Shown here piece after piece: positions 20,868 to 45,892 of a stretch of DNA of 64,000 nt. The notes below the pieces were generated by a model. That model saw only the letters and a list, made by a program, of their open reading frames with translations, was not told the DNA's origin and ran no database searches. The DNA is taken from positions 3,619-67,618 of the forward strand of contig JAFTZF010000001.1 of the NCBI GenBank assembly GCA_017464645.1, written 5' to 3'. This stretch comes from Lachnospiraceae bacterium (lineage in GTDB: Bacteria; Bacillota_A; Clostridia; Lachnospirales; Lachnospiraceae). How positions within the stretch are numbered: the first letter of the stretch is position 1; the number at the start of each line of letters is the position of its first letter. The translations under genes and the position numbers were made by a program.

Positions 20868-21041
20868 GCATATAAGAAATGTTTGCAGACGGGCTCTTGA
20901 GTCTTGGGAAAGATTCATGCGGAAGAAATTTAAAGCAGCTGCTGAATACAATACGAGAAGGGATTCCGGCAGTTTTATTTTTGGGAAATATTGTTAAAAA
21001 AACAACAAATAGCAAAGCGCTATTAGGAAAGGAGCATGCCT

Positions 21042-21989
21042 ATGAGCAGTAAAATCACGATTATTGGAGCGGGGAGTGTAGGAGCGACTATCGCATACAC
21101 CTTGACCAAAACAGACATCGCTTCGGAAATTGTCCTGATTGACATTAATAAAGAAAAGGCGGCAGGAGAGGTAATGGACATCGAGCAGGGAACTTATTTC
21201 CGAAACCCGATTTCTATTATGGACGGAGATTATCCGGATGCAGCCGGTTCGGATATTGTGATCATCACATCCGGGATCGCACGCAAACCCGGTCAGACCA
21301 GGATCGAGCTGACTCAGACCAATGTAAATATTCTGAAGAATATTACGCCGGAGATCGTGAAAGCGGCTCCTGATGCACTCTATATTATAGTAAGTAATCC
21401 GGTGGATATCATGACTTATGTATTCACCAAGATCTCCGGTCTGCCGGAGAGACAGATCATGGGTTCCGGAACACTTCTGGATACCGTTCGTCTGCGCTGC
21501 GGTCTTTCTGAGCATTTTCAGATCGCCCAGAAGAACATCCATGCTTACGTATTCGGTGAGCACGGAGACACCTCTTTTATTCCCTGGTCGGGTGCATATA
21601 TTTCCGGTGTCAGCGTGGATGAGTACTATGAACTGATGAAGAACCTGGGAAGACCGGTAGAGGAACTGGATAAGGACGCCATGCTGACTTATGTACAGAA
21701 GTCCGGCGGCCAGATCATTGCAAACAAGGGGGCGACCTTCTATGCAGTGTCCACAGCCGTTTGTGAGCTGTGCAAGGTCCTGCTTTCTTCTTCCGAATCC
21801 ATCACCACCGTTTCTTCCATGATGCATGGAGAGTACGGAATCGAGGATGTGTGCCTGAGCACACTGACTCTGCTGGGCCCTGACGGAATCGCAGGCAAAG
21901 TTCCCATGCGGATGAGAAAAAATGAAATCGAGCTGCTGCAGGCAAGTGCAAAAGCACTGAAGGAAGTTATTGCGCAGATTGAATTATAA
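21042..21989 (+). CDS. LDH-fold dehydrogenase, probable malate dehydrogenase
   Basis: 315 residues, NAD-dependent (Rossmann GAGSVGATIA, Asp34 at the end of the second strand selecting NAD). Most of the sequence is lactate-dehydrogenase-like (GEHGDTS with the catalytic His, LLDTVRLR with Asp and Arg). The substrate loop, however, reads IARKPGQTR, with Arg81 where LDHs have Gln (position 102) and malate dehydrogenases have Arg. That single residue switches preference to oxaloacetate/malate. It heads an operon with fumarase and fumarate reductase, which fits malate dehydrogenase. ATG 21042 is chosen because AAAGGAG lies 7 bases before it. Confidence 0.85.
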   Translation: MSSKITIIGAGSVGATIAYTLTKTDIASEIVLIDINKEKAAGEVMDIEQGTYFRNPISIMDGDYPDAAGSDIVIITSGIARKPGQTRIELTQTNVNILKNITPEIVKAAPDALYIIVSNPVDIMTYVFTKISGLPERQIMGSGTLLDTVRLRCGLSEHFQIAQKNIHAYVFGEHGDTSFIPWSGAYISGVSVDEYYELMKNLGRPVEELDKDAMLTYVQKSGGQIIANKGATFYAVSTAVCELCKVLLSSSESITTVSSMMHGEYGIEDVCLSTLTLLGPDGIAGKVPMRMRKNEIELLQASAKALKEVIAQIEL

Positions 21990-22007
21990 AGAAAGGACAA
22001 GGAAACT

Positions 22008-22805
22008 ATGAAGTACAGTTATTATCCAGGATGTACGTTGAGAACAAAGGCAAAAGATCTGGATGTCTATGCGAAGGCTTCTGCCAAAGCATTGGGGCTG
22101 GAACTGGAAGAGATAGAAGAGTGGCAGTGCTGCGGCGGAGTATATCCGCTAGGCACTGATGAGATTGCCACCAAGCTTTCTTCAGTCCGTGTTCTGAACG
22201 AGGCAAAACAAAAGGGACAGGATCTGGTAACTGTCTGTTCCGCCTGTCATCATGTGATCAAACGGGTAAATGATGACATGAAGAATGTGGAAGATATCCG
22301 CACCCGGGCAAACAATTACATGCAGCTTGAGGAGCCCTATGCAGGTGAGACCACTGTGCTGCATTATCTGGAACTGCTTCGCGACCGGGTTGGTTTTGAA
22401 GCATTGAAGGAAAAAGTGGTAAATCCTCTGACTGGCAAGAAGATCGGTGCATATTATGGATGCCTGTTGCTTCGCCCCGGCAAACTGCTGCAGTTTGATA
22501 ACCCGGAGAATCCCAGTATTATCGAGGATTTCATCCGTGCCATCGGAGCAGAGCCGGTAGTATATCCCTATAGAAATGAGTGCTGCGGCGGATACATATC
22601 CCTGAAAGAAAAAGATATGGCGAAAAACATGTGCTGCAACATTATGGACAGCGCAGCAGGCTTTGGCGCCGACATGCTGATCACCGCCTGTCCGCTGTGT
22701 ATGTATAACCTGAAGCAGAACGGAAATGACAGCCTTCCTGTATATTATTTCACAGAATTGCTGGCAGAGGCTCTCGGAGTGAAGGAGGTAGCACAGGGTG
22801 AATAA
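22008..22805 (+). CDS. hdrB: Heterodisulfide-reductase-like subunit B (two CCG domains)
   Basis: 265 residues. Two cysteine-rich CCG repeats are complete: YYPGC, QCCGG and CSACH in the first; YYGC, NECCGG and CPLC in the second. In archaeal HdrB these hold two non-cubane [4Fe-4S] clusters that cleave the CoM-S-S-CoB disulfide. Clostridia lack those thiols, so here it should pass electrons to another acceptor; the fumarate reductase in the same operon is the obvious candidate. Lies 18 bases after mdh and overlaps hdrC by 8 bases. Confidence 0.9.
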   Translation: MKYSYYPGCTLRTKAKDLDVYAKASAKALGLELEEIEEWQCCGGVYPLGTDEIATKLSSVRVLNEAKQKGQDLVTVCSACHHVIKRVNDDMKNVEDIRTRANNYMQLEEPYAGETTVLHYLELLRDRVGFEALKEKVVNPLTGKKIGAYYGCLLLRPGKLLQFDNPENPSIIEDFIRAIGAEPVVYPYRNECCGGYISLKEKDMAKNMCCNIMDSAAGFGADMLITACPLCMYNLKQNGNDSLPVYYFTELLAEALGVKEVAQGE

Positions 22806-23187
22806 AGTAGAACAGCAGGTAGAACAGATCAAAGAAATCAGTGGTGTGAATCCGCTGAAATGTATGAAGTGCGGAAAATGTTCCGCGTCCTGCCCTTCAT
22901 TTAATGAGATGGATATCAAACCTCATCAGTTTGTATCCTATGTGGCAAACGGGGACATTGAATCTCTGGTAAATTCCAAATCTCTCTGGAAATGCCTTTC
23001 CTGCTTCGCATGCGTGGAACGCTGTCCCAGAGATGTGAAACCTGGAAAACTTATTGATGCAGCAAGACAGCTGGTTGTGCGCCAGAAGGGTCAGGATTAC
23101 CTGAAGGCAGAAGAGATCCCGGAGCTTTTGGATCCGGAAATGCCTCAGCAGCTGCTGGTTAGTGCATTCAGAAGATACAGGAGGTAA
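22798..23187 (+). CDS. hdrC: Heterodisulfide-reductase-like subunit C
   Basis: 129-residue ferredoxin-like subunit with two [4Fe-4S] motifs, CMKCGKCSASCP and CLSCFACVERCP. It wires HdrA to HdrB. Translation starts at GTG 22798 inside the end of hdrB, with GGAGGT upstream, so the two are coupled. It has no membrane helix, as in cytosolic HdrABC. The hdrA GTG follows 5 bases after its stop. Confidence 0.9.
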   Translation: MNKVEQQVEQIKEISGVNPLKCMKCGKCSASCPSFNEMDIKPHQFVSYVANGDIESLVNSKSLWKCLSCFACVERCPRDVKPGKLIDAARQLVVRQKGQDYLKAEEIPELLDPEMPQQLLVSAFRRYRR

Positions 23188-23192
23188 GTCAG

Positions 23193-25181
23193 GTGCAGAG
23201 AATAGGAGTTTTTGTATGTCACTGCGGCAGCAACATTGCAGCCACTGTGGATGTAAAAAAAGTAGTAGAAGTAATACAGGCAGAGCCCGGTGTGGTTCAT
23301 GCTGAGGATTATCAGTATATGTGTTCCGAAGCCGGACAGGCAAAGATCGCAGATGCGATCCGTGAAAAAGGCCTGACAGGAATCGTTGTATGTTCCTGCT
23401 CTCCCCGAATGCATGAAACAACCTTCCGTAAAGCGGCAGAAAGAGCCGGCCTGAATCCTTATATGGTGGAGATCGCCAATATCCGCGAGCACTGCTCCTG
23501 GATCCATAAGGATATGGAAGAGGCTACCGAAAAGGCAGTGATCCTGGCAAGAGCCGCTGTTGCGAAGGTAAATTTAAACACACCGCTGAAGCCCGGCGAG
23601 AGCCGTGTGACCAAGCGCGCTCTGGTGATCGGCGGCGGTATCGCAGGTATCCAGACTGCTCTGGATATTGCGGATGCAGGCTATGAAGTAGATATCGTAG
23701 AAAAGACTCCCAGTATCGGAGGAAGAATGTCTCAGCTGGACAAAACCTTCCCCACCCTGGACTGTTCTGCATGTATCTTAACACCGAAGATGGTGGAAGC
23801 TGCTGCTCATGAGAAGATCAAGATCTATACATATAGCGAAGTGGAAAAGGTTTCCGGCTTCGTAGGCGATTTTACTGTAGATATCCGTAAGAAAGCCCGC
23901 AGTGTAGATATGGATAAATGTACCGGTTGCGGTGTTTGTCAGGAAAAATGTCCTTCCAAGAAGGCTCCCAGCGAGTTCAACCGCGGCCTGAACACCAGAA
24001 GTGCCATTTACACGCCCTTTGCCCAGGCGATCCCCAATGTGCCTGTGATCGACAGAGAGAGCTGTATCAAGTTCAAGACCGGTAAATGTGGTGTCTGCTC
24101 CAAGGTATGTCAGGCAGGAGCCATTGACTACGATCAGGTAGATGAGATCGTAACAGAAAAGTACGGCGCGATCGTTGTAGCAACCGGTTTTGATACCATC
24201 AAGCTGGACAACTATGACGAGTACGCATACAGCCAGAGCAAGGATGTGATCACTTCTCTGGAGCTGGAGCGTGTCATGAATGCTGCAGGCCCCACCAAGG
24301 GACATCTGGAGCGTCTTTCTGATGGAAAACATCCGAAAGAGATGGTATTTATCCAGTGTGTAGGCAGCAGATGCTCTGACGACAGAGGAAAGAGCTACTG
24401 CTCCAAGATCTGCTGTATGTATACTGCAAAACACGCCATGTTGATCCGTGATAAATATCCGGATGTAAATGTAACCGTATTCTATATTGATGTGCGTACA
24501 CCCGGCAAGAACTTTGACGAGTTCTACAGAAGAGCCGTAGAGCAGTACGGTGTAAACTACATCAAGGGTCAGGTAGGCAAAGTCATTCCCCAGCCGGACG
24601 GAAAGCTTCTGGTTCAGGGTGTAGACCTGCTTGATAATAAACAGATTCTCAAGGAAGCGGATATGGTCGTTCTGGCAACTGCCATCGAGCCCAATCCGGA
24701 TGTGAGAAAGATTGCAACCATGCTGACTGCCAGCATCGATACCAACAACTTCCTGACAGAAGCTCATGCCAAGCTGCGTCCCGTAGAGTCCCCCACCGCA
24801 GGCATTTTCCTGTCCGGCGTTTGCCAGGGACCCAAGGATATTCCCGAGACTGTAGCTCAGGCCGGTTCTGCAGCAGTGAAGGTAGTTGGACTTCTGGCAA
24901 AAGATAAGCTGCTGACTAACCCCTGTACCGCTCAGGCAGACGAGCTGCTGTGTAACGGCTGCTCTACCTGTGCAAATGTGTGTCCTTACGGCGCAATTAC
25001 CTACGAAACCAAGCAGGTAAATGACCACGGTATTCGCGAAGACAGAAGAATCGCAGTGGTAAACAGCGCGCTGTGCCAGGGCTGTGGTGCATGTACCGTA
25101 GCCTGCCCGTCAGGTGCTATGGACCTGCAGGGATTCTCTAACAGACAGATTTTAGCGGAGGTGGATGCAATATGTCGATAG
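23193..25181 (+). CDS. hdrA: HdrA-like flavin and iron-sulfur electron-splitting subunit
   Basis: 662 residues, full length for HdrA. An N-terminal CHCGSN segment is followed by the FAD fingerprint GGGIAGIQTALD near residue 147. A ferredoxin-type insertion is near 240 (CTGCGVCQEKCPSK) with further cysteines to about 310 (CGVCSKVCQAGA). Two C-terminal [4Fe-4S] motifs (CNGCSTCANVCP, CQGCGACTVACP) follow. HdrA is the flavin subunit that bifurcates electron pairs in methanogens and is the core of HdrABC-Flx complexes. GTG start with AGGAGG 8 bases before it; its end overlaps the flxD-like gene by 10 bases. Confidence 0.93.
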   Translation: MQRIGVFVCHCGSNIAATVDVKKVVEVIQAEPGVVHAEDYQYMCSEAGQAKIADAIREKGLTGIVVCSCSPRMHETTFRKAAERAGLNPYMVEIANIREHCSWIHKDMEEATEKAVILARAAVAKVNLNTPLKPGESRVTKRALVIGGGIAGIQTALDIADAGYEVDIVEKTPSIGGRMSQLDKTFPTLDCSACILTPKMVEAAAHEKIKIYTYSEVEKVSGFVGDFTVDIRKKARSVDMDKCTGCGVCQEKCPSKKAPSEFNRGLNTRSAIYTPFAQAIPNVPVIDRESCIKFKTGKCGVCSKVCQAGAIDYDQVDEIVTEKYGAIVVATGFDTIKLDNYDEYAYSQSKDVITSLELERVMNAAGPTKGHLERLSDGKHPKEMVFIQCVGSRCSDDRGKSYCSKICCMYTAKHAMLIRDKYPDVNVTVFYIDVRTPGKNFDEFYRRAVEQYGVNYIKGQVGKVIPQPDGKLLVQGVDLLDNKQILKEADMVVLATAIEPNPDVRKIATMLTASIDTNNFLTEAHAKLRPVESPTAGIFLSGVCQGPKDIPETVAQAGSAAVKVVGLLAKDKLLTNPCTAQADELLCNGCSTCANVCPYGAITYETKQVNDHGIREDRRIAVVNSALCQGCGACTVACPSGAMDLQGFSNRQILAEVDAICR

Positions 25182-25615
25182 AAGCAAAAGAAGAATTCAG
25201 ACCGAAAATCGTAGCTTTCTGCTGTAACTGGTGCAGCTACGCAGGAGCAGACTTAGCCGGCAGCAGCCGACTGACCTATCCGGCAGATGTAAAGATCATC
25301 CGCGTTCCCTGTTCCTGCCGTGTAAACCCCATGTTCATCCTGCGGGCATTTGAGAAAGGTGCAGACGGCGTGATCCTGTGCGGATGCCACCCGGGTGACT
25401 GCCATTACAGCACCGGTAATTACTACGCAAGAAGACGTATGACACTGCTGTTTTCCATGCTGGATTACATGGGAGTGGAAAACGGACGTACAAGAGTAGA
25501 GTGGGTTTCCGCTGCAGAAGGTGTGAAATTCTCACAGACCATGAATGAGTTTGTGGAAAAGATTCAGTCTCTTGGAAAAAATGTAAGATTGGGGGATTTG
25601 AGATGCAGGAATTAA
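25172..25615 (+). CDS. MvhD/FlxD-like [2Fe-2S] subunit
   Basis: 147 residues of the hydrogenase delta-subunit (MvhD) family, which binds one [2Fe-2S] cluster and links an electron-input module to HdrA. Cysteine motifs FCCNWCSYAGAD, VPCSCRVNP and GCHPGDCHY are all present. No hydrogenase large or small subunit is nearby, so the input partner is the Flx-like NADH module that follows, not H2. Start and stop both overlap their neighbours, indicating tight coupling in the complex. Confidence 0.9.
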   Translation: MSIEAKEEFRPKIVAFCCNWCSYAGADLAGSSRLTYPADVKIIRVPCSCRVNPMFILRAFEKGADGVILCGCHPGDCHYSTGNYYARRRMTLLFSMLDYMGVENGRTRVEWVSAAEGVKFSQTMNEFVEKIQSLGKNVRLGDLRCRN

Positions 25616-26577
25616 TCAATCGTGCAAAAGAACTGCTGGCAGACGGAACCGTGACCCGCGTTCTGGGCTGGAGAGCAGGCGATTTGCCTTATAATCCGGA
25701 ACCTGCTTACTTTGAGACAGAAGAATCCCTGAAAGATTTCGTGTACAACGGATTCTGCGGAGCCAATTTAAGCAAGTATCTGATCGAAGCTTCCAAATGG
25801 GAAGGAAAGACCCTGGTTTGCCTGAAGCCCTGCGATACATACAGCTTCAATCAGCTGATTAAAGAGCATCGTATTGAAAGAGAAAAGGTTTACATCATCG
25901 GTGTTGGCTGCAAAGGCAAGCTGGACATCGAAAAGATCAAAGCCATGGGTATCAAAGGTATCCGGTCCATCCAGGGCGCAGAGATGACCGATGACGCAGA
26001 AGAACTGAAGATCCAGACCATCTACGGCGAAAAGACCTGTGCTTACAAGGATGCTATGCTGGAGAGATGCCACGTGTGCAAGGGCAAAGAGCACAAGGTT
26101 TATGACGAGCTGATCGGTGAGTCCAAGGATACCAAGGATGCAGAGCGTTTTGCAGAGGTAGAGCGTATCGAGGCCATGAGCCCCGAAGAGAAGTTTGCAT
26201 ACTTCCGGAGCGAGCTGAGCAAATGTATCCGCTGCAATGCCTGCAGAAACGTATGTCCTGCATGCAGCTGCCGCAAGTGCGTATTTGACAGCACCAAGTT
26301 CGACAGCGCCCAGAAGGCAAATGTGGATTCCTTTGAAGAGAAGATGTTCCACATCATCCGTGCCTTCCATGTGGCAGGAAGATGTACCGACTGCGGCGAA
26401 TGCAGCCGTGTATGTCCCCAGGGTATTCCGCTCCACCTGTTCAACCGCAAATTCATTAAGGATATCAATGAGTTCTACGGTGAGTATCAGGCGGGAGAAG
26501 ATATTGACGCAAAAGCACCGCTGACCAACTTCACATTTGATGATGTGGAGCCTGGCATTGTAGGAAAGAGGGGGTAA
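25603..26577 (+). CDS. FlxB-like iron-sulfur subunit
   Basis: 324 residues. The N-terminal 190 residues resemble the FrhB/Flx-type fold with scattered cysteines (LKPCDTY, GVGCKGK, CHVCKG). A dicluster ferredoxin domain with CIRCNACRNVCPACSCRKC and CTDCGECSRVCPQG follows near 205-275. It sits between the MvhD-like subunit and a second dicluster protein, as in Flx gene sets of sulfate reducers and clostridia. Role inferred: relay of electrons from the NADH-oxidising FAD subunit towards HdrA. Which of the two dicluster proteins is B and which is C is assigned by order only. Confidence 0.78.
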   Translation: MQELINRAKELLADGTVTRVLGWRAGDLPYNPEPAYFETEESLKDFVYNGFCGANLSKYLIEASKWEGKTLVCLKPCDTYSFNQLIKEHRIEREKVYIIGVGCKGKLDIEKIKAMGIKGIRSIQGAEMTDDAEELKIQTIYGEKTCAYKDAMLERCHVCKGKEHKVYDELIGESKDTKDAERFAEVERIEAMSPEEKFAYFRSELSKCIRCNACRNVCPACSCRKCVFDSTKFDSAQKANVDSFEEKMFHIIRAFHVAGRCTDCGECSRVCPQGIPLHLFNRKFIKDINEFYGEYQAGEDIDAKAPLTNFTFDDVEPGIVGKRG

Positions 26578-26580
26578 TGT

Positions 26581-27612
26581 ATGTATAAGATCAAAAAAGA
26601 AAATCTGACCGCATTATTCCAGTTGATTGCAAAAGAGCAGGAGCTGTATCTGCCCGTAGAAGTGAGCGGACAGGTAAATTTCAAAGCCTGGACTGAGGAT
26701 GCAAAGGTAGATCTTACAACCTTAAAGACTGTAAAATCTCCCAAAGACGCATTCTTCCCCCAGAGCGAGACGCTCTATTCCGTAAAGAGAGAGGGCAAGA
26801 ACATTCACATTGAGCCGGAAGCACTGCAGGATCAGAGCTTTGTAGTATTCGGCATGAAGGCCTGTGATATCAAGGGCATCGAAGTTTTGGACAAAGTATT
26901 CTTAGCTGAGCCGGTGGATACCTTCTATGCAGCCAGAAGAGCCCACGGAACCATCGTGGCTCTGGCCTGCCATGAGCCGGAAGAGTCCTGCTTCTGCAGC
27001 GTATTCGGCGTAGACCCGGCAGATCCCTCCAAAGCTGCAGCAGATGTGGCTCTGTGGGATGTGGAAGACGGCTACTGCTGGAAAGCTCTCACGGAAAAGG
27101 GTGAGGTGCTCACTGAGCTGGCAAAATCTCTGCTGGAAGCAGGGGACGAGGCAGAGGTAGACGCTGAAATGGCTTCCATCCGGGCCATCGTAGAAAAGCT
27201 TCCCTACACAGACCTGTCCTTAGAAGGCTGGGGCGGCGAGGCACTGAAAGACAAATTCGATTCTCCCCTGTGGGATGAATTATACAAACCCTGCCTGGCA
27301 TGCGGCACCTGTACCTTTGTATGCCCCACCTGTCAGTGCTACGATATTAAAGACTATGATACCGGACATGGCGTACAGAGATACCGCTGCTGGGACTCCT
27401 GTATGTATTCCGACTTCACCATGATGGCTCACGGCAATAACCGTACCAGCCAGCTGCAGAGATTCCGTCAGCGCTTTATGCACAAGCTGGTGTACTTCCC
27501 GGCCAACAACGATGGCATGTACTCCTGTGTAGGCTGCGGACGCTGCGTGGAAAAATGTCCGTCTGCTTTGAATATTGTGAAAGTGATAAAAAAATTTGGA
27601 GGTGACAAGTAA
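26581..27612 (+). CDS. FlxC-like iron-sulfur subunit (AsrA-like)
   Basis: 343 residues, dicluster ferredoxin protein related to anaerobic sulfite reductase subunit A and hydrogenase accessory electron carriers. The N-terminal domain (about 1-230) contains VFGMKACDIKGIEVLD and CHEPEESCFCSVFG. The C-terminal motifs are CLACGTCTFVCPTCQC near 238 and CVGCGRCVEKCPSAL near 320. Its stop overlaps the next start (TAATG). Probably carries electrons between the FAD/NAD subunit and the rest of the complex. Confidence 0.8.
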   Translation: MYKIKKENLTALFQLIAKEQELYLPVEVSGQVNFKAWTEDAKVDLTTLKTVKSPKDAFFPQSETLYSVKREGKNIHIEPEALQDQSFVVFGMKACDIKGIEVLDKVFLAEPVDTFYAARRAHGTIVALACHEPEESCFCSVFGVDPADPSKAAADVALWDVEDGYCWKALTEKGEVLTELAKSLLEAGDEAEVDAEMASIRAIVEKLPYTDLSLEGWGGEALKDKFDSPLWDELYKPCLACGTCTFVCPTCQCYDIKDYDTGHGVQRYRCWDSCMYSDFTMMAHGNNRTSQLQRFRQRFMHKLVYFPANNDGMYSCVGCGRCVEKCPSALNIVKVIKKFGGDK

Positions 27613-28484
27613 TGAGTGAACAGAACAAGAACCATGAATGTACCTGTCATCAGAATTATACACTGGATACCCTGATCCCCCAGGTTGGTGTCATTACAGA
27701 CATCCGCCAGGAGACCCCGGATGTAAAGACCTTCCGTGTCAATGCGCCTGAGGGAGGCAAGCTGTTCGAGCATATGCCCGGCCAGTGTGCTATGGTATGC
27801 GGCCCCGGTGTCAGTGAAGGTATGTTTTCCATTACCTCTTCACCCACCAACAAAGAATTCCAGGAGTTCAGTATCAAGAGATGCGGCTCTCTGACCGAGT
27901 ATCTCCACAGCCTTCAGGTAGGAGATCAGATCACGGTCCGGGGACCCTACGGAAACCACTTCCCGGTGGAGACTGAGCTGAAGGGCAAGAACCTGTTGTT
28001 CATTGCCGGAGGTATCGGTCTTGCGCCCCTTCGTTCCGTGATCAACTATGTACTGGACAATCGTGAGAACTACGGAACCGTTGATATTCTCTACGGATCC
28101 CGTTCTGCAGATGACCTGGTACAGCTGAAGGAGATCCAGGAAGTCTGGATGAAGACAGAAGGTGTCAATGTATATCTGACCATTGACCGTGAACAGGAAG
28201 GCTGGGATGGCCATGTAGGCTTCGTGCCCTCTTACCTGAAAGAAATCGGTTTCACCACAGACAAAGTAGCACTGGTTTGCGGACCGCCCATTATGATCAA
28301 GTTCGTTCTGGCCGGACTGCAGGAGCTTGGTTTCACCAAAGAACAGGTCTACACCACACTGGAGCTTCGTATGAAGTGCGGTATCGGCAAATGCGGCCGC
28401 TGCAACATCGGTTCCAAATATGTGTGCAAGGATGGCCCGGTATTCCGCTTTGATGAGATCGACGAGTTGCCGAATGAGTACTAG
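27612..28484 (+). CDS. FlxA-like FAD/NAD(P)-binding reductase subunit
   Basis: 290 residues of the ferredoxin-NADP reductase superfamily, AsrB/hydrogenase-gamma type. The FAD site is near MFSITSSP (about residue 75), the pyridine-nucleotide loop is AGGIGLAPLRS near 125-135, and a C-terminal [2Fe-2S] cluster is held by CGIGKCGRCNIGSKYVC. It is the only NAD(P)H-binding subunit in the cluster and so the presumed electron entry, oxidising NADH for the Hdr core. The NADH or NADPH choice cannot be fixed from sequence. Confidence 0.87.
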   Translation: MSEQNKNHECTCHQNYTLDTLIPQVGVITDIRQETPDVKTFRVNAPEGGKLFEHMPGQCAMVCGPGVSEGMFSITSSPTNKEFQEFSIKRCGSLTEYLHSLQVGDQITVRGPYGNHFPVETELKGKNLLFIAGGIGLAPLRSVINYVLDNRENYGTVDILYGSRSADDLVQLKEIQEVWMKTEGVNVYLTIDREQEGWDGHVGFVPSYLKEIGFTTDKVALVCGPPIMIKFVLAGLQELGFTKEQVYTTLELRMKCGIGKCGRCNIGSKYVCKDGPVFRFDEIDELPNEY

Positions 28485-28510
28485 AATTACGTTGGAAAGG
28501 AAAAAAGAAA

Positions 28511-29185
28511 ATGGCAGATATGATTAACGTATATTTATATGGTAAAAAGTATGAAGTTCCATCTGATTTGACCATCATGGAAGCTTTTGAATACGCAGGT
28601 TACCAGCTGGTTCGTGGTTGTGGCTGCAGAAACGGTTTCTGCGGTGCCTGTGCTACCATTTACAGGATCAAGGGACAGAATGAACTGAAAGGCTGTCTGG
28701 CATGCTCTACTAAGGTAGAGGACAACATGTGCGTAGCCACCTTACCCTTCTTCCCTCTGGAAAAGAAGATTTATGATATCACTGAGATCAAACCCACACA
28801 GCAGGTTATGATGCAGCTGTATCCGGAGATTTACGCATGTGTAGGCTGTAATGCCTGTACAAAGGCATGTACACAGGATCTGAATGTAATGCAGTACATT
28901 GCCCATGCTCAGAGAGGCGAGTTTGAAGAGTGTGCAGAGCTGTCCTTCGACTGCGTTATGTGCGGTGTATGTTCCTCCCGCTGTCCCGCAGGCATTTCTC
29001 ATCCCCAGGTTGCTCTTCTGGCAAGAAGACTTACAGGTAAGTATCTGAAACCGGAAGCAGAGCATCTGACCAAGAGAGTAGAGGAAATCGAGAACGGCGA
29101 TTGCCAGGCAATGATCGAAGCGATTATGGCAAAACCCTTAGCAGAGTTAAAAGAGCTTTACAATACCAGAGATATTGAGAAGTAA
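28511..29185 (+). CDS. frdB: Fumarate reductase iron-sulfur subunit
   Basis: 224 residues. The N-terminal [2Fe-2S] ferredoxin domain has CGCRNGFCGAC and a fourth Cys at KGCLAC. Two C-terminal motifs, CVGCNACTKACTQ and CVMCGVCSSRCPAG, both have four cysteines, so two [4Fe-4S] clusters are expected rather than the [4Fe-4S]/[3Fe-4S] pair of membrane enzymes. It carries no CCG domain, unlike methanogen TfrB; that part may be supplied by the separate HdrB. It lies 12 bases before the flavoprotein gene. Confidence 0.85.
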   Translation: MADMINVYLYGKKYEVPSDLTIMEAFEYAGYQLVRGCGCRNGFCGACATIYRIKGQNELKGCLACSTKVEDNMCVATLPFFPLEKKIYDITEIKPTQQVMMQLYPEIYACVGCNACTKACTQDLNVMQYIAHAQRGEFEECAELSFDCVMCGVCSSRCPAGISHPQVALLARRLTGKYLKPEAEHLTKRVEEIENGDCQAMIEAIMAKPLAELKELYNTRDIEK

Positions 29186-29197
29186 GGAGGACGAAAA

Positions 29198-30817
29198 ATG
29201 AGTTTACCATATACAGCTGAGATGATGGAATCTATCAAAAAAGTAGAAGCCGGCAGAGCTGCTCGTATCGGTTTTGAACCCAGACGTATGACAGCAGATG
29301 AAAAGACCGCGCTTCTGGAAGCATTCCATCCGGATTATAACCTGGACACCTTTGAGGAGATCAAGGTTGGCCCCAACGCAGGCGAGAAGGCACCCAAGGA
29401 ATTGGTTGAGATCCTTCAGGGCGAAAGCAGGATCAAAGGTCTGGACCTGGATCTGTCCAAGCCGGACTATGATGTAGATGTACTGGTTATCGGTGGCGGC
29501 GGAGCCGGTTCTTCCGCAGCCATCGAGGCAAACGAGGCCGGTGCAAATGTAATGATCGTTACCAAGCTTCGTATCGGTGATGCAAACACCATGATGGCAG
29601 AGGGCGGTATTCAGGCTGCTGACAAAGAAAATGACTCCCCCGCACAGCATTATCTGGATGTCATGGGCGGCGGCCATTTCGCAAATGTGCCGGAGCTGGT
29701 AGAAAAACTGGTTTGTGACGGCCCTATTGCAGTAAACTGGCTGGACAAATTAGGTGTATTATTCGATAAAGACGAAAACGGCAGAATGATCACCACCCAC
29801 GGCGGCGGTACTTCCCGTAAGAGGATGCATGCTGCAGCTGACTATTCCGGTGCAGAGATCATGCGTGTATTAAGAGATGAAGTACTGAACAGAGGGATCC
29901 CGGTAGTGGATTTCACTGCAGCCATCGAGATCATCAAGGATACCGACGGAAAGGCAGCAGGTGCAGTGCTCCTGAACATGGAGACCAATGAGATCCTGAT
30001 CGCCAGAGCAAAGACAGTGATCATTGCTACCGGTGGTGCAGGCCGTATGCATTATCAGGGATTCCCCACCTCCAACCATTACGGTGCAACTGCTGACGGT
30101 CTTGTTCTTGCATACCGTGCAGGCGCTTCCCTGTTGTATCAGGATACACTGCAGTATCATCCCACAGGTGTAGCGTTCCCCTCTCAGATCTACGGTGCGC
30201 TGGTAACCGAAAAGGTTCGTTCCATGGGTGCTATGTTCGTAAACAAAGACGGCGAAGTATTCATGCATCCCCTGGAGACCAGAGACGTGGCTGCTTCCGG
30301 TATCATCAGAGAGTGCAAGGAGAGAGGAAAGGGTGTACAGACCCCCACCGCAGAAGGCATCTGGCTTGACACTCCCATGATCGATATGATCCACGGAGAA
30401 GGCACTCTGGAGAAGAGACTGCCGGGTATGCTCCGTATGTACTTAAGATGCGGTATCGATATGCGTAAGGTGCCCATCGTAATTTATCCGACCCTGCATT
30501 ACCAGAACGGCGGTATCAAGATTTCCGTAAACGGTATGTCTGAAGTAGAAAACCTGTATGTAGCAGGCGAGGCAGTAGGAGGAATCCATGGCAGAAACAG
30601 ACTGATGGGCAACTCCCTGCTGGATATTATCGTATTCGGACGCAATGCCGGAAAAGAAGCAGGCGCAAAATGCAAAGAAGTTCAGTTGAAGGAGCTGACA
30701 CTGTCCCACGTGGATGATTTCTCTAAGATGCTCAAAGATGCAGGTATCGAACCGAAGGTTGTATCCCCCAAATTATTGCCGGACTACAGACCCGAAGGCG
30801 TAACAAGATTAAACTAG
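29198..30817 (+). CDS. frdA: Fumarate reductase flavoprotein subunit (soluble type)
   Basis: 539 residues. The FAD fingerprint GGGGAGSSAAIEANEAGA is near residue 92. Catalytic segments are intact: HGGGTSRKR, QYHPTG, ETRDVAASGIIRE with the proton-relay Arg, HYQNGGI and RNRLMGNSLLD. Where membrane FrdA/SdhA have the covalent-FAD His (SHTVAAEGG) this protein reads ANTMMAEGG, so FAD is probably non-covalent. No signal peptide and no FrdC/FrdD anchor genes are present, so it should act in the cytoplasm. An N-terminal extension of about 80 residues precedes the FAD domain. Operon context favours fumarate to succinate. Confidence 0.88.
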   Translation: MSLPYTAEMMESIKKVEAGRAARIGFEPRRMTADEKTALLEAFHPDYNLDTFEEIKVGPNAGEKAPKELVEILQGESRIKGLDLDLSKPDYDVDVLVIGGGGAGSSAAIEANEAGANVMIVTKLRIGDANTMMAEGGIQAADKENDSPAQHYLDVMGGGHFANVPELVEKLVCDGPIAVNWLDKLGVLFDKDENGRMITTHGGGTSRKRMHAAADYSGAEIMRVLRDEVLNRGIPVVDFTAAIEIIKDTDGKAAGAVLLNMETNEILIARAKTVIIATGGAGRMHYQGFPTSNHYGATADGLVLAYRAGASLLYQDTLQYHPTGVAFPSQIYGALVTEKVRSMGAMFVNKDGEVFMHPLETRDVAASGIIRECKERGKGVQTPTAEGIWLDTPMIDMIHGEGTLEKRLPGMLRMYLRCGIDMRKVPIVIYPTLHYQNGGIKISVNGMSEVENLYVAGEAVGGIHGRNRLMGNSLLDIIVFGRNAGKEAGAKCKEVQLKELTLSHVDDFSKMLKDAGIEPKVVSPKLLPDYRPEGVTRLN

Positions 30818-30829
30818 GGGGCGTAAAAA

Positions 30830-31981
30830 ATGAATATTCTGACATGGTTTCAGGAAAGTGTGATGAGCAACAGCATGATGATCGTGTTTTTGATCGCAGT
30901 CATCGGCTATCTGGTAGGAAGAATCCGTATCTGCGGATTGGATCTGGGTACAGCAGGTATTTTGCTGGTGGCACTGGTATTTGGTCATTTTGGTGTGGAA
31001 GTTCCGTCTATCGTAAGGGAAATGGGTCTCATCTGTTTTGTAACGGCAGTAGGCTTTATCGCAGGACCCAAGTTCTTCCGGAACTTTAAGTTAAATGCCA
31101 AGTCTTATGTACTTCTTGGACTGATTGTCATTGCGGCAGGCGCATTGACTTGTGTGGCCACCATCCTGATTTTCGGTGTACCCACCGATATCAGTGTGGG
31201 TATGATGTCCGGTGCACTGACCAGTACTCCGGGTCTGGCAGCAGCTCTGGAGGCAACCGGATCTGATGCGGCTTCCGTAGGTTACGGTATTGCATATCCC
31301 TTTGGTGTAGTAGGTGTAGTGCTGTTTGTACAGCTGATTCCGAAATTGCTAAAAGTAGATATGGACGCAGAGCGTGCAAAATTTGAATCCGTAGCCAATG
31401 TAAAAGTGGAAGGCCGGCAGAAGAAACTTCTGGATGTGGATCCTATGGGCTTCTTTGCCTTTGGTCTGGCCATTGTATTGGGCATCATTCTGGCAAAGAT
31501 TGAGATACCCCTGCCGGGCGGCGGAGTGTTTGCGCTGGGAACTTCCGGCGGTCCATTGATCGCAGGTCTGGTTCTGGGACATTTTGGCCATGTGGGTCCC
31601 GTAAATGTAAAAGTAGAAAAACGAATTCTGGAGTGCATGCGTGAATTTGGTCTGGCACTGTTCCTGCTGGGTGCAGGCGTACAGGCCGGTGCAGGCTTTG
31701 TAGAGATATTAAAAGAACACGGAGCACTGCTGTTCCTGTACGGAGCGCTGATGACCACTGTTCCCATGCTGCTGGGCTATGTGTTTGCAGTGAAGGTACT
31801 GAAGCTGAGTGTATTGAATGCGCTGGGCTCTATCTGCGGCGGTATGACCAGTACACCGGCTCTGGGAACCCTGATTCGTGTAGCAGGAACCGATGATGTG
31901 GCAAGTGCTTATGCAGCTACTTATCCGGTGGCACTGGTTATGGTAGTGCTTTCCTGCCAGTTTATCGGCATCTTCCTGTAG
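30830..31981 (+). CDS. AAE-family transporter, probable succinate exporter
   Basis: 383 residues with about ten membrane helices and an internal duplication: GALTSTPGLAAALEATG in the first half and GGMTSTPALGTLIRVAG in the second, the signature of the aspartate:alanine exchanger family (AspT, YidE, YbjL, SucE). SucE of Corynebacterium exports succinate. Placed between fumarate reductase and fumarase, this copy most likely exports the succinate made by the pathway; C4-dicarboxylate exchange is the alternative. It lacks the central TrkA-C domains of larger AAE proteins. AGGGGG precedes the ATG. Confidence 0.83.
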   Translation: MNILTWFQESVMSNSMMIVFLIAVIGYLVGRIRICGLDLGTAGILLVALVFGHFGVEVPSIVREMGLICFVTAVGFIAGPKFFRNFKLNAKSYVLLGLIVIAAGALTCVATILIFGVPTDISVGMMSGALTSTPGLAAALEATGSDAASVGYGIAYPFGVVGVVLFVQLIPKLLKVDMDAERAKFESVANVKVEGRQKKLLDVDPMGFFAFGLAIVLGIILAKIEIPLPGGGVFALGTSGGPLIAGLVLGHFGHVGPVNVKVEKRILECMREFGLALFLLGAGVQAGAGFVEILKEHGALLFLYGALMTTVPMLLGYVFAVKVLKLSVLNALGSICGGMTSTPALGTLIRVAGTDDVASAYAATYPVALVMVVLSCQFIGIFL

Positions 31982-32024
31982 CATGGCAGTGTATAATTAA
32001 GAAGTGTTTTGGAGGTAACAACTC

Positions 32025-32867
32025 ATGCGTGAGATTACAGCACAGCAGATCACAGATGTTGTGGAAAAATTATGTATCGAAGCAAACCAGTTCCTTCCCA
32101 AGGATGTGCAGGGCGCGATTCGCCGCTGCCGTGCCTGTGAGGACTGGGAGATCGCCCAGGGAGTTCTGGACAAGATCATTACCAACTTTGAGATCGCAGA
32201 GCAGGAGCAGGTCCCCATTTGCCAGGATACCGGCATGGCCTGTGTATTTCTGGAGATCGGCCAGGACGTACATATTGTAGGCGGCGACTTAAGAGAAGCC
32301 GTAGACGAAGGTGTGCGCCGTGGTTATGACAAGGGCTACCTGAGAAAATCTGTAGTAAAAGACCCTGTTCGTCGCGGCAACACCGGTGACAACACACCGG
32401 CTATGCTCTACACGGAGATCGTTCCCGGCGAGCAGATCAAAATAACCGTAGGCCCCAAGGGCTTTGGAAGTGAGAATATGAGTGCGATCCGCATGTTCAA
32501 GCCCTCTGCAGGCATTGAAGGCATCAAGGATTTTATTCTGGAGACTGTAGAAGCAGCAGGCCCCAATCCCTGCCCGCCCATGGTAGTAGGTGTAGGAATC
32601 GGCGGTACCTTTGACAAATGTGCCCTGCTGGCCAAGAAGGCTCTCATGCGCAGTACCGATGTGCGCAACGGAGATCCCTACTACGCAGCACTGGAAGAGG
32701 AGATGCTGGAGAAGATCAATAAGCTGGGTATCGGACCTCAGGGCTTTGGCGGCAAGACCACCGCTCTGGCACTGAACATCGAGACTATGCCCACTCATAT
32801 TGCCGGCATGCCCTGTGCAGTCAATATCAACTGTCATGTAACACGTCATCAGTCGGAGGTGATCTAA
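32025..32867 (+). CDS. Fumarase class I, alpha subunit
   Basis: 280 residues, the [4Fe-4S]-binding part of a two-subunit, oxygen-sensitive fumarase. The three cluster cysteines are likely those in PICQDTGMAC, GPNPCPP and GTFDKCALLAKK. The same family includes L(+)-tartrate dehydratase alpha; the mdh and frd neighbours favour malate/fumarate interconversion. TTGGAGGT lies before the ATG. It is followed by the beta subunit with a single base between stop and start. Confidence 0.92.
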   Translation: MREITAQQITDVVEKLCIEANQFLPKDVQGAIRRCRACEDWEIAQGVLDKIITNFEIAEQEQVPICQDTGMACVFLEIGQDVHIVGGDLREAVDEGVRRGYDKGYLRKSVVKDPVRRGNTGDNTPAMLYTEIVPGEQIKITVGPKGFGSENMSAIRMFKPSAGIEGIKDFILETVEAAGPNPCPPMVVGVGIGGTFDKCALLAKKALMRSTDVRNGDPYYAALEEEMLEKINKLGIGPQGFGGKTTALALNIETMPTHIAGMPCAVNINCHVTRHQSEVI

Positions 32868-32868
32868 T

Positions 32869-33429
32869 ATGGAAAAACACATTCAGCTTCCCTTAACAGA
32901 GGAACTTGCAAAGACCCTTCACGCCGGCGACAGTGTTTACCTGACCGGTACCATTTATACATCCCGTGACGCAGGTCACAAGAGAATGTGCGAAGCCCTT
33001 GCCCGGGGCGAAGAGCTTCCCTTTGATCCTACCGATGCAACCATCTACTATGTAGGACCTACACCCGCAAAGCCGGGCCAGGTCATTGGTTCTGCAGGCC
33101 CCACCACCAGCGGCCGTATGGACGCCTATGCGCCCACCATGATGTCCGTAGGTGCCCGTGGCATGATCGGTAAAGGCGCCCGCCTTCCGGAAGTTGTAGA
33201 TGCCATGAAGAAATACCACGGTGTTTACTTTGGAGCTATCGGCGGTGCAGGCGCACTGCTTGCAAAATGCATCAAAAAGGCTGAGTTGATCGCATACGAA
33301 GATCTGGGTGCAGAGGCTCTGCGCAAACTCTATGTAGAGGATATGCCGCTGGTTGTCATCATCGACAGCCAAGGCAACAATCTCTATGAGATGGGTAAAG
33401 CCGAGTATCTGGCGAAACAGGAGAAATAA
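32869..33429 (+). CDS. Fumarase class I, beta subunit
   Basis: 186 residues, the C-terminal half of class I fumarases as a separate chain. Typical segments are LTGTIYTSRDAGHKRM, YYVGPTPAKPGQVIGSAGPT, TSGRMD, GKGARLP and GAIGGAGALLA. Last gene of the 13-gene operon. With the alpha subunit it dehydrates malate to fumarate. A hairpin follows the stop. Confidence 0.93.
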   Translation: MEKHIQLPLTEELAKTLHAGDSVYLTGTIYTSRDAGHKRMCEALARGEELPFDPTDATIYYVGPTPAKPGQVIGSAGPTTSGRMDAYAPTMMSVGARGMIGKGARLPEVVDAMKKYHGVYFGAIGGAGALLAKCIKKAELIAYEDLGAEALRKLYVEDMPLVVIIDSQGNNLYEMGKAEYLAKQEK

Positions 33430-33589: not shown

Positions 33590-35173
33590 ATGGCAGAAGT
33601 GTCTAAGATCGGAAAAGATTTTCTTAAAACCCTGGGAGGGATGTATACACATATTGGTTTGGTTTTTCAGGTAGCGCCGGAGACTGCAAAAGCGCCGAAA
33701 CAAAAGAAAATCCGAAAGTGGCTGGAGAAAAGATATAAAGAAGCTATACAGACTTTTCCGGATCAGGTACGCAGCTGTTTTTCAGAAGAGTATTCGGATC
33801 AGGAATTGTTCCTTTGGTTGAAAGCTTGTATTGAGCAGCTTCACGCTGATTTTGCCGAAAAGAAACGCTACCATGATAAAATTGCCTGCCAGTGGGGAGA
33901 GGATGTACAGGAAGCTTTGTGGGATGTGTTGGAGGAAGCGTTATGGAAGTCCGTGAAGGTAGTTGATAACGCCCTTGAAATTGTTGCAAAAGAAACGCAG
34001 GCCTATTGCTGTACCCTGATTTTAGAAGATGTGTGCGGTGTGCCGGAAAAAATAGAAAACAGTTTTCTGGAAGAACTGCAATTAGTGCAGGCAGAAGCGG
34101 AAAATCGCTATGGTATTGTTGGTATGTGCCGATTGAGAGAAACTGTGGGCCCCGCCAAACTTTGCATTGAGTTTTCATCTGCAAAGGTCCGGGTAGATGT
34201 GTACAATGGTTTTAGCAGCGCCGAGTTTTTTGAGAATCCCTGGAGGTTTTTACGGACCATAGCTTTTGGAATAGGGCAGAAATTACAGTTGCAGGGAAAT
34301 TATTGCAATGCTGCAGAGAAAGAACTATTGCCCGTTATTCAAGAACTTGTGAATTTGGAGCATTGGCTGGAAATGCCCGAATCACCGTTTTTGGAGTTCC
34401 CTGAATTAAAAAGGTCAGCGGTTCAATATGGATGCAAGAGAGTCACTGTGTTGCTTGAGAAGGCAGAAAAGCAAAAGGCCGGAAGTAAAAAATGGAATCG
34501 TTTGGAACGTCAGATAGTTGCAGAACTTTGCAAGAAAGATTGTGAGCCCTTGTGGAGAGATCTTTTTGACAAGTTTCAAGTTTCCCAGAGAGATTATCCT
34601 AACAAAATGGAAAACTATTGTTCGGCGGAACATCTTTTAGAAATCCGGACAAAGATACAGGGCTTGATGCATTCACACGGCTATAGTGGTACTTATCCTG
34701 ATTTTGTAAAATATGCGCCAATGAAGGGCTTGCACGTAGTGGAATCCTACGGCGTAAACTATACGGTCGGTATGGAAAAGAATGCGGTATATCGGATTCA
34801 TTGTTTGGAAACGGTTGAAGATTCTGATTCCTTTGCAGTTCATTTTTTACATGGAACCGCACTTTGTAAATATAACCAGAAAATAACAGATATCTATTCT
34901 TGTCTTTTTAATGCAAAAGGCAGGTGCTGGTATGATCAGGTAAGCTATTATTGGACAACGGACGAAAACACGGAATTGGAAGAGGAGAATTTAGAAACAA
35001 AGGTCACAATTTGCGTAAAGAGAGCAGAATGCAAAAGACTTACAAAAGAAGAGAGAAAAGCAATTTATACAGGAGAGGAATCTTATGCAAGTTTGTTTCT
35101 GTTTTGGCTCATTAGCTGGATTGGCTTTGGCGGGGCCATGGGAGTTGTGGACGTGTTGGCAAAAAGAAAATAA
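33590..35173 (+). CDS. Large protein of unknown function (DUF3878-like)
   Basis: 527 residues, mostly soluble, with one hydrophobic segment near the C-terminus (LFLFWLISWIGFGGAMGVV). The region YPDFVKYAPMKGLHVVESYG and the following GMEKNAVYRIHC recall DUF3878 proteins of clostridia, but this is from memory and unconfirmed. The N-terminal two thirds are rich in helices and acidic/basic pairs. GGGGAGG lies before the ATG. It has its own terminator. Nothing links it to the fumarate operon; codon use is more AT-rich than there. Confidence 0.7.
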   Translation: MAEVSKIGKDFLKTLGGMYTHIGLVFQVAPETAKAPKQKKIRKWLEKRYKEAIQTFPDQVRSCFSEEYSDQELFLWLKACIEQLHADFAEKKRYHDKIACQWGEDVQEALWDVLEEALWKSVKVVDNALEIVAKETQAYCCTLILEDVCGVPEKIENSFLEELQLVQAEAENRYGIVGMCRLRETVGPAKLCIEFSSAKVRVDVYNGFSSAEFFENPWRFLRTIAFGIGQKLQLQGNYCNAAEKELLPVIQELVNLEHWLEMPESPFLEFPELKRSAVQYGCKRVTVLLEKAEKQKAGSKKWNRLERQIVAELCKKDCEPLWRDLFDKFQVSQRDYPNKMENYCSAEHLLEIRTKIQGLMHSHGYSGTYPDFVKYAPMKGLHVVESYGVNYTVGMEKNAVYRIHCLETVEDSDSFAVHFLHGTALCKYNQKITDIYSCLFNAKGRCWYDQVSYYWTTDENTELEEENLETKVTICVKRAECKRLTKEERKAIYTGEESYASLFLFWLISWIGFGGAMGVVDVLAKRK

Positions 35174-39295: not shown

Positions 39296-39434
39296 AATTT
39301 CAGACAAGAAAAATATTGAAAATACTGCCATTTTTGGATAAAATATACTATATTAATAGAAAATAGTTCCGAATATTGTGCAAGAAAACGTCCCGTGTTC
39401 ACATTCAAAAACATACAATCAAGGGGGAATTGTT

Positions 39435-45862: not shown

Positions 45863-45892
45863 AAAGGATTGAAATAACGAGGATTGAGATAA

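What the first reader, a model, noticed from the sequence alone, without database searches (positions are those of the whole stretch)
21042..33429. Thirteen-gene operon predicting an HdrABC-Flx-linked soluble fumarate reductase with its own malate, fumarase and export steps
Directly seen: 13 co-directional genes, most separated by under 45 bases or overlapping, in the order LDH-fold dehydrogenase, HdrB, HdrC, HdrA, MvhD-like, two dicluster Fe-S proteins, FAD/NAD reductase, FrdB, FrdA, AAE transporter, fumarase alpha and beta. Known: HdrABC-Flx sets oxidise NADH and can bifurcate electrons; TfrAB of methanogens reduces fumarate with thiols. Inference: NADH enters at the FlxA-like subunit, HdrA splits electrons, and HdrB passes the high-potential branch to FrdBA, making succinate while reducing ferredoxin. 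The fumarate couple (about +30 mV) is far above NADH, so the drop could pay for ferredoxin reduction. I know of no established clostridial enzyme of exactly this make-up, but I cannot search the literature.
Basis: partly seen in the sequence, partly recalled or inferred. Interest (0 to 1): 0.9.

Follow-up and report, generated by a model that had tools for sequence, protein, structure and literature searches.

The report
Gut-bacterium succinate operon with Hdr-Flx module
A gut-type clostridial genome carries a 13-gene operon that appears to turn oxaloacetate into succinate with a soluble fumarate reductase fed by NADH through an electron-splitting Hdr-Flx module, a design already proposed in print for one other clostridium and still awaiting an enzyme test as far as I found.

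Summary
In detail: 13 co-directional genes, gaps -13 to +43 nt, families as described; gene 1 is probably malate dehydrogenase. Fumarate reduction coupled to ferredoxin through Flx-Hdr is supported indirectly but not new: PMC7282089 describes such a 'succinate operon' in Pseudoclostridium thermosuccinogenes and cites a 2019 preprint proposing it. New evidence here: the HdrBCA-FlxDCBA-FrdBA order is intact in the best 80 loci kept of 579 relatives (63 complete, 17 cut at contig ends, none reordered). A fumarase of one of two unrelated classes, never both, lies in 51 of 55 loci. In one genus group the same 15 of 60 genomes hold FrdA and this HdrB. HdrB diverged most between FrdBA-linked and other Flx-Hdr sets, pointing to HdrB as FrdB's electron donor. 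Against an obligate complex: 15 of 30 more distant FrdBA loci show no Hdr gene within 9.5 kb, three of them cut by contig ends, and 8 of 30 FrdA-family genomes show no FrdBA-type HdrB. Bifurcation remains inferred.

The parts
21036..21989 (+). malate dehydrogenase of the LDH fold (oxaloacetate to malate)
   Evidence: Pfam Ldh_1_N/C; TIGR01771 L-LDH over cut-off but Arg83 at the LDH/MDH specificity position, 41 of 41 relatives with a letter there; best PDB match 1y6j, named L-lactate dehydrogenase, also has Arg there
22008..22805 (+). HdrB, FrdBA-type: two CCG stretches, probable electron donor to FrdB
   Evidence: PF02754; best NCBIfam hits MFR SdhE 145.6 bits and HdrB 129.7 bits, both under cut-off; 10 CCG cysteines invariant in 63 of 63; separate HdrB branch
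22798..23187 (+). HdrC, 2x[4Fe-4S]
   Evidence: eight Cys invariant in 63 of 63
23193..25181 (+). HdrA, FAD and Fe-S subunit, inferred site of electron bifurcation
   Evidence: HdrA2 model 792.8 bits; full-length match to solved HdrA 5odc, 687 bits; K413 and E359 (5odc K409, E356) invariant where aligned
25172..25615 (+). FlxD / MvhD-like linker to HdrA
   Evidence: PF02662; matches the C-terminal part of the HdrA2 model
25603..26577 (+). FlxC-like dicluster Fe-S protein
   Evidence: best PDB matches are F420-formate dehydrogenase beta subunits from Hdr complexes
26581..27612 (+). FlxB-like dicluster Fe-S protein (sulfhydrogenase beta / AsrA-like)
   Evidence: PF17179; ShyB, HydB and AsrA models under cut-off
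27612..28484 (+). FlxA-like FAD/NAD(H) reductase, inferred electron entry
   Evidence: NAD_binding_1, FAD_binding_6, DHODB Fe-S; best PDB match sulfhydrogenase gamma 9nez_C
28511..29185 (+). FrdB: [2Fe-2S] plus two full [4Fe-4S] motifs, no CCG domain
   Evidence: the eight Cys of the two CxxCxxCxxxC motifs kept in 80 of 80
29198..30817 (+). FrdA: fumarate reductase flavoprotein with about 90-residue N-terminal extension, no covalent-FAD His
30830..31981 (+). short AAE-family (Asp-Al_Ex) transporter, probable dicarboxylate/succinate exporter
   Evidence: PF06826 in two stretches; TIGR01625 over cut-off
32025..32867 (+). class I fumarase alpha
   Evidence: PRK06246 422.4 bits over cut-off 276
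32869..33429 (+). class I fumarase beta
   Evidence: PRK06842 292.6 bits over cut-off 238

Best explanation
The operon makes succinate from oxaloacetate as an electron sink. Malate dehydrogenase makes malate, class I fumarase makes fumarate, and FrdBA reduces fumarate in the cytoplasm. NADH is oxidised at the FlxA-like subunit; electrons pass FlxB/FlxC/FlxD to the HdrA flavin. There the pair is split: one electron goes to ferredoxin and the other goes HdrC -> HdrB -> FrdB -> FrdA -> fumarate (net 2 NADH + fumarate + 2 Fd_ox -> 2 NAD+ + succinate + 2 Fd_red). The short AAE transporter exports succinate. Shown by sequence: gene content, order, cofactor motifs, co-inheritance, HdrB co-specialisation. 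Inferred: the HdrB-FrdB contact, NADH as donor, bifurcation and export. My step confidences: pathway 0.9, HdrBC-to-FrdBA electron transfer 0.75, ferredoxin-coupled bifurcation 0.6.
For: Nine-gene core in one order in the 80 loci kept (63 complete, 17 cut at contig ends). Substrate: of 55 loci with at least 2.6 kb before hdrB, 38 have a class II-type fumarase directly before hdrB, 13 have class I fumarase in the locus, 0 have both, 4 neither; MDH within 2 kb upstream in 36 of 55 (class II confirmed by model for 5 of 5 sampled). Unit inheritance: the same 15 of 60 genus-group genomes have FrdA and HdrB, 0 of the other 45 have either at the cut-offs used. HdrB tree: a 100/99 branch of length 0.76 separates 27 of 28 HdrBs lying beside FrdBA from 22 of 22 HdrBs of genomes without this FrdA family; the one exception, L126, is a second HdrB, as that contig has another HdrB scoring 223.7 bits just outside the fetched stretch. 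Between/within distance ratio: HdrB 1.50, HdrC 1.32, the other five subunits 1.10-1.15. FrdBA-specific columns: HdrB 10, FlxC 3, HdrC 2, HdrA, FlxD, FlxB and FlxA 1 each. Methanogen TfrB's model aligns weakly to this FrdB in its N-terminal part (36.6 bits) and to this HdrB in its C-terminal part (41.4 bits), so such modules are fused in a known fumarate reductase. Of four operon-bearing genomes, Rnf is over cut-off in 3, [FeFe] hydrogenase in 3, menB found in 0, Sdh_cyt over cut-off in 0. PMC7282089 reports about 4-fold higher expression of the similar operon at low CO2.
Against: No biochemical data exist for this operon that I could find. Of 30 more distant FrdBA loci (about 50-63% identity), 15 have no Hdr gene within 9.5 kb (three of these are cut by a contig end within 3 kb upstream: L123, L128, L131) and 8 have HdrA but no FlxA. 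Of 30 FrdA-family genomes, 3 have no HdrA match at 1e-90, and 8 show no FrdBA-type HdrB: G300, G071, G075 and G134 no HdrB match at 1e-20, G043, G037, G079 and G084 only HdrBs of at most 41% identity. All subunit trees built cluster the FrdBA label (2 to 4 changes), so shared ancestry explains part of the HdrB signal, and the split may be a single event. The 12 Hdr sets lying elsewhere in FrdA genomes were labelled (5 FrdBA-type, 7 other) after I had seen their HdrB scores, and those labels enter. The L001 genome has no RnfC over cut-off. An MqnA-family match over the Pfam cut-off occurs in 1 of 4 genomes, and these genomes may be incomplete, so quinone absence is not proven.
Confidence: 0.6

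Rival explanations
1. Direct but non-bifurcating: NADH electrons run through Flx-Hdr to FrdBA as a simple NADH:fumarate reductase; the HdrA flavin passes both electrons to HdrC and ferredoxin is not reduced.
For: The Blautia luti paper assumes an NADH-dependent fumarate reductase in its energy scheme (passages); the drop to +33 mV (fumarate value seen in PMC5861303) needs no coupling.
Against: HdrA keeps its Fe-S cysteines nearly throughout, and the residues matching 5odc K409/E356 (role recalled) are invariant where aligned; a simple reductase would not obviously need an HdrA with ferredoxin domains, yet no kept locus with room lacks it.
Confidence: 0.17
2. Indirect: Flx-Hdr reduces a soluble disulfide and the thiol then feeds FrdBA or other reactions, like methanogen thiol:fumarate reductase.
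For: HdrB keeps both CCG motifs intact in 63 of 63, as in heterodisulfide-reducing HdrB (alignments).
Against: FrdB has no CCG domain to oxidise a thiol. Of the 10 FrdBA-specific HdrB columns, 6 lie within three residues of a cluster cysteine, where I expect a disulfide to bind (recalled), and HdrB follows FrdBA.
Confidence: 0.1
3. Co-regulated neighbours only: FrdBA takes electrons from ferredoxin or another donor, and Flx-Hdr is a separate redox module transcribed alongside.
For: 15 of 30 distant FrdBA loci have no Hdr gene within 9.5 kb; some sit with malic enzyme, pyruvate carboxylase, or cytochrome c and FMN-binding genes; 8 of 30 FrdA-family genomes show no FrdBA-type HdrB.
Against: One order in the 80 kept near relatives; identical 15-of-60 presence pattern; 27 of 30 FrdA-family genomes have HdrA against 83 of 269 others; five FrdBA genomes keep a FrdBA-type HdrB elsewhere in the genome, and a sixth by score (G280).
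Confidence: 0.13

Closest known systems
'Succinate operon' of Pseudoclostridium thermosuccinogenes (PMC7282089, 2020; it cites the 2019 preprint 10.20944/preprints201912.0288.v1, which I did not see)
   Same: Fumarase, Flx-Hdr genes (seven by the tag range), two fumarate reductase genes and a possible succinate transporter in one operon; ferredoxin-linked fumarate reduction assumed
   Different: Fumarase is a single locus tag at the Flx-Hdr end there (inferred from tag numbers); the window has class I fumarase genes at the other end and an MDH first. Protein identity between the two was not tested
FlxABCD-HdrABC NADH dehydrogenase/heterodisulfide reductase (Ramos et al. 2015, seen only as a cited reference)
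   Same: All seven subunit types in one run
   Different: HdrB belongs to a separate branch from the 22 HdrBs sampled from Flx-Hdr sets in genomes without this FrdA family
tfrAB interspersed with flx-hdr in tubeworm symbionts and Thioflavicoccus (PMC6315080, passages)
   Same: Fumarate reductase genes interspersed with flx-hdr; a shared complex suggested
   Different: There within a reverse TCA cluster with korABCD; gene order and proteins not compared here
Thiol:fumarate reductase TfrAB of methanogens
   Same: FrdA/FrdB-type plus CCG chemistry; the TfrB model aligns weakly to this FrdB and to this HdrB in different parts
   Different: CCG domain is on a separate HdrB here; TfrA match 332.9 bits against cut-off 718
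Methylmenaquinol:fumarate reductase SdhABE
   Same: HdrB's best NCBIfam hit is its CCG subunit SdhE (145.6 bits)
   Different: Far below that model's cut-off of 500; no menB found in 4 related genomes

Membership tests
Flx-Hdr-linked fumarate reductase (P. thermosuccinogenes type) | hdr and flx genes contiguous with frdBA | tested here: met
Flx-Hdr-linked fumarate reductase (P. thermosuccinogenes type) | fumarase in the operon | tested here: met
   51 of 55 relatives with room
Flx-Hdr-linked fumarate reductase (P. thermosuccinogenes type) | sequence homology to the P. thermosuccinogenes proteins | not tested
   that genome was not identified among the loci fetched
Flx-Hdr-linked fumarate reductase (P. 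thermosuccinogenes type) | fumarate-dependent ferredoxin reduction by NADH | not testable with these tools
   needs an anaerobic enzyme assay
FlxABCD-HdrABC | FlxA, B, C, D and HdrA, B, C encoded together | tested here: met
   the Flx subunits by domain make-up and place, as no Flx-specific model was among the hits
FlxABCD-HdrABC | HdrB with both CCG cluster motifs | tested here: met
   10 Cys in 63 of 63; alignment to solved HdrBs
Thiol:fumarate reductase TfrAB | CCG thiol-site domain fused to the FrdB part | tested here: not met
   FrdB is 224 aa with no PF02754 match
Thiol:fumarate reductase TfrAB | TfrA equivalog score over cut-off | tested here: not met
   332.9 bits against 718
Quinol:fumarate reductase / complex II | membrane anchor subunit in the operon | tested here: not met
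   no such gene among the 13; Sdh_cyt over cut-off in 0 of 4 related genomes (two weak matches)
Quinol:fumarate reductase / complex II | covalent FAD through His of FrdA | tested here: not met
   Asn130 at that position (alignment; role of the His recalled), 80 of 80 relatives
Quinol:fumarate reductase / complex II | [3Fe-4S] third cluster motif in FrdB | tested here: not met
   both motifs are full CxxCxxCxxxC, 80 of 80; pattern of the [3Fe-4S] motif recalled
Methylmenaquinol:fumarate reductase SdhE | SdhE model score over cut-off | tested here: not met
   145.6 against 500 bits

The most novel reading that the evidence does not exclude
FrdBA with its own HdrB/HdrC head is a portable fumarate-reducing output module that Clostridia couple to more than one input (Flx from NADH, or a double-HdrA set lacking FlxA), giving a family of electron-bifurcating fumarate reductases widespread in animal-gut Bacillota; succinate formation there would drive ferredoxin reduction, and so Rnf- or hydrogenase-linked energy gain, without quinones.
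Probability: 0.45. Interest if true: 0.75.

Novelty: new member of a known kind. Interest (0 to 1): 0.55.

Why it matters
Succinate is an important gut metabolite, and fumarate reduction in gut Lachnospiraceae can be drawn as a plain NADH-dependent step: the Blautia luti energy budget computes 3.05 ATP per glucose with such an enzyme (3.15 with another hydrogenase), and the string 'hdr' does not occur in its main text (passages). In the genus group of Blautia glucerasea, 15 of 60 genomes carry FrdA and the FrdBA-type HdrB together. If fumarate reduction also reduces ferredoxin, such budgets would need an added energy-conserving step. The comparative result names the subunit (HdrB) and the columns to mutate, so the 2019-2020 proposal becomes directly testable in culturable commensals. 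The interest is lowered because the core idea was already published.

Tried and rejected
Gene 1 as lactate dehydrogenase, the NCBIfam call: set aside because of Arg83 and the pathway context. Another enoate than fumarate as substrate: unlikely, since class I and class II fumarases stand in for each other in the operon. Rfam control element: only two tRNAs in the window at gathering scores. Promoter and terminator scan: 17 promoter-like sites against 14.4 expected, no use. Fold search on FrdA: residues before 74 are barely covered by the listed matches, so the N-terminal extension stays unassigned. Paper searches whose listings showed no enzyme test of a Flx-Hdr fumarate reductase, judged from titles, abstract starts and the passages named here: (open-licence PMC only; most subscription papers and preprints are not held; the longer lists were cut at 20-40 rows). 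Dropped before counts: L126 and L165 (long or misplaced rows). The HdrB tree used 13 of the 63 available HdrBs from L001-L080; L135, L159, L160, L167, L170, L171 and L172 were left out because no HdrB ORF was recognised. The AU groups were chosen after seeing the identity table; the seven-row FrdBA set was rejected on both gene sets, on FrdBA itself because L011 belongs with it. A first count of MDH directly upstream used a tight spacing rule (13 of 59); 37 of 59 have an MDH in the locus, because a fumarase gene often lies between.


Full report
OBSERVATION. The window holds 13 co-directional ORFs at 21036-33429 with gaps of -13 to +43 nt. NCBIfam and Pfam give the stated order: LDH/MDH fold, HdrB, HdrC, HdrA, MvhD-like FlxD, two dicluster Fe-S proteins, FAD/NAD reductase, FrdB, FrdA, then an Asp-Al_Ex transporter and class I fumarase alpha and beta. 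No whole genome is held for the window. The closest FrdA loci with record titles are MAGs named Lachnospiraceae, Tyzzerella and other Clostridia, several from ruminant gut samples by their titles (L001 94%, L002 95%).

GENE 1. NCBIfam scores it over the L-lactate dehydrogenase cut-off. It carries Arg83 in the stretch ARKPG, where the LDH 4m1q has Gln and 1y6j has Arg (alignments). Arg is kept in 41 of 41 relatives with a letter there. That Gln/Arg decides pyruvate against oxaloacetate is recalled. I read it as malate dehydrogenase.

CONSERVED ORDER. The scan reported 579 relatives and kept the best 80 (71-95% identical). All 80 keep HdrB-HdrC-HdrA-FlxD-FlxC-FlxB-FlxA-FrdB-FrdA as far as the contig reaches: 63 complete, 17 cut by a contig end, 0 reordered. 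In 55 loci with at least 2.6 kb before hdrB, 38 have a fumarase-like gene directly upstream (class II by model for 5 of 5 sampled), 13 have class I fumarase in the locus, none has both, 4 have neither (L014, L023, L024, L065); MDH lies within 2 kb upstream in 36. Two unrelated fumarases filling the same role is good evidence that the substrate is fumarate.

ONE UNIT OF INHERITANCE. In 60 genomes of the genus of L046 (record title Blautia glucerasea; the genomes themselves unnamed), FrdA (E 1e-100) occurs in 15 and this HdrB (E 1e-60) in the same 15; the other 45 have neither. In 13 of the 15 both lie on one contig, 7.2-7.4 kb apart from gene start to gene start by the listed coordinates. In 299 genomes of the phylum, 30 have the FrdA family (50% identity or more, full length) and 27 of these have HdrA at 1e-90, against 83 of 269 others (Fisher p 2.8e-10, uncorrected for kinship).

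WHICH SUBUNIT MEETS FRDB. I compared HdrBs lying beside FrdBA with HdrBs of Flx-Hdr sets from genomes without this FrdA family. In a tree of 62 HdrBs, a branch with support 100/99 and length 0.76 separates 27 of 28 HdrBs beside FrdBA from 22 of 22 of the others. The exception, L126, is a second HdrB: its contig holds another HdrB, 47% identical and 223.7 bits, just outside the stretch I had fetched. The tree also held 12 Hdr sets from elsewhere in FrdA genomes; 5 fall on the FrdBA side and 7 on the other. I labelled these 12 after seeing their scores, so they are no independent test, though the labels enter. By score (rows on the FrdBA side 214-319 bits outside L001-L080, others 147-199), 21 of 30 FrdA-family genomes have a FrdBA-type HdrB, one more (G258) has a cut fragment at 49% identity, and 8 show none. 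Trees of HdrC, HdrA, FlxD and FlxA also group the label in 2 to 4 changes, so shared descent is part of the pattern. But the between/within distance ratio singles out HdrB (1.50) and then HdrC (1.32) against 1.10-1.15 for HdrA, FlxA, FlxB, FlxC and FlxD. FrdBA-specific conserved columns number 10 in HdrB, 3 in FlxC, 2 in HdrC and 1 in each of HdrA, FlxD, FlxB and FlxA. Of the 10, 6 lie within three residues of a cluster cysteine, a zone that holds 40 of the non-cysteine positions. The methanogen TfrB model aligns weakly to this FrdB over positions 18-148 and to this HdrB over 415-487 (36.6 and 41.4 bits), so such modules are one polypeptide in a known fumarate reductase. HdrB's best NCBIfam match is SdhE, the CCG subunit of methylmenaquinol:fumarate reductase, well below cut-off. 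Together these favour HdrC -> HdrB -> FrdB -> FrdA. They do not prove contact.

EXCHANGE IN PLACE. On FrdBA, the window, L001 and L017 group with L006-L009 and L011 (100/100); on HdrA+HdrB+FlxD+FlxA they group with a 14-row clade that includes Blautia and Mordavella (100/100). The 14-row clade is rejected on the FrdBA data (AU p 0.0014), with groups named after seeing the identities (28 rows used). So frdBA appears to have been replaced inside the operon, with the new pair still beside the resident Hdr-Flx genes.

CONTEXTS THAT DO NOT FIT A FIXED COMPLEX. Thirty further FrdBA loci from the phylum sample (L113-L142; about 50-63% identity) fall into: 5 with Hdr and FlxA, 8 with HdrA but no FlxA (mostly a double-HdrA set), 2 with HdrB/HdrC only, 15 with no Hdr within 9.5 kb. 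Of the 15, L123, L128 and L131 are cut by a contig end within 3 kb upstream (coordinates). The group without Hdr includes loci with malic enzyme and fumarase, pyruvate carboxylase, cytochrome c with FMN-binding proteins, and MmgE/PrpD or aconitase. Five such genomes carry a FrdBA-type HdrB elsewhere (L145-L148, L163), and G280 does by score. The family can therefore probably be fed in more than one way, and the direct-complex claim is strongest for the window's close relatives.

MECHANISM. HdrA matches solved HdrA over its full length (5odc, 687 bits); E359 and K413 correspond to 5odc E356 and K409 and are invariant where aligned (a role near the flavin is recalled). Fumarate/succinate is at +33 mV (passage in PMC5861303). 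With recalled values for NADH (-320 mV) and ferredoxin (-420 to -500 mV), 2 NADH + fumarate + 2 Fd_ox releases about 33 to 49 kJ/mol under standard conditions, so bifurcation is affordable. Rnf is over cut-off in 3 of 4 genomes and [FeFe] hydrogenase in 3 of 4, each genome having at least one, so reduced ferredoxin has users. The transporter family includes a succinate exporter (start of the abstract of PMC9527358 in the listing); the window's copy is 383 aa against 553-562 positions in the full AAE models.

PRIOR WORK. PMC7282089 (passages and section 8) describes the P. thermosuccinogenes succinate operon with fumarate hydratase, Flx-Hdr, fumarate reductase and a possible succinate transporter, about 4-fold higher at low CO2 (not significant for all subunits), and assumes ferredoxin-linked fumarate reduction, citing a 2019 preprint that I did not see. 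PMC6315080 (passages) notes tfrAB and korABCD interspersed with flx-hdr in tubeworm symbionts. The finding is thus a member of a kind already proposed. The comparative tests on HdrB, fumarase replacement, joint inheritance and frdBA exchange did not appear in the passages I read; I do not claim they are absent from print.

VERDICT.

Noticed in passing
Bacillota HdrA relatives: Many full-length HdrA relatives (about 52-61% identity) have one in-frame TGA, suggesting selenocysteine HdrA; the window HdrA has none.
   Followed up: no
L124, L129, L130, L132, L134, L136: Double-HdrA sets (a normal HdrA of about 650 aa plus an HdrA-like protein of 1053-1098 aa) with HdrB, usually HdrC and FlxD, and a FlxC-like protein sit before FrdBA; no FlxA, input donor unknown.
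   Followed up: partly
window 29198-29467: FrdA N-terminal extension of about 90 residues, mostly confident in the model but hardly covered by known structures before residue 74.
   Followed up: partly
window 30830-31981: AAE transporter is short (383 aa) compared with the 553-562 positions of the full family models.
   Followed up: no
window 39378-41417: Membrane-bound ion-translocating pyrophosphatase; gyrase/topoisomerase IV-type subunits B and A lie further downstream at 43940-48139.
   Followed up: no
window 33590-35173: 527-aa ORF just after the operon with no Pfam match at E 1e-8.
   Followed up: no
L118, L133: FrdBA beside FMN-binding Fe-S proteins, with cytochrome c proteins in L118: a possibly respiratory use of the same FrdBA family.
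   Followed up: no
G285 contig C3: One FrdBA cluster holds two HdrB genes about 3 kb apart, one FrdBA-type by score and one not.
   Followed up: no
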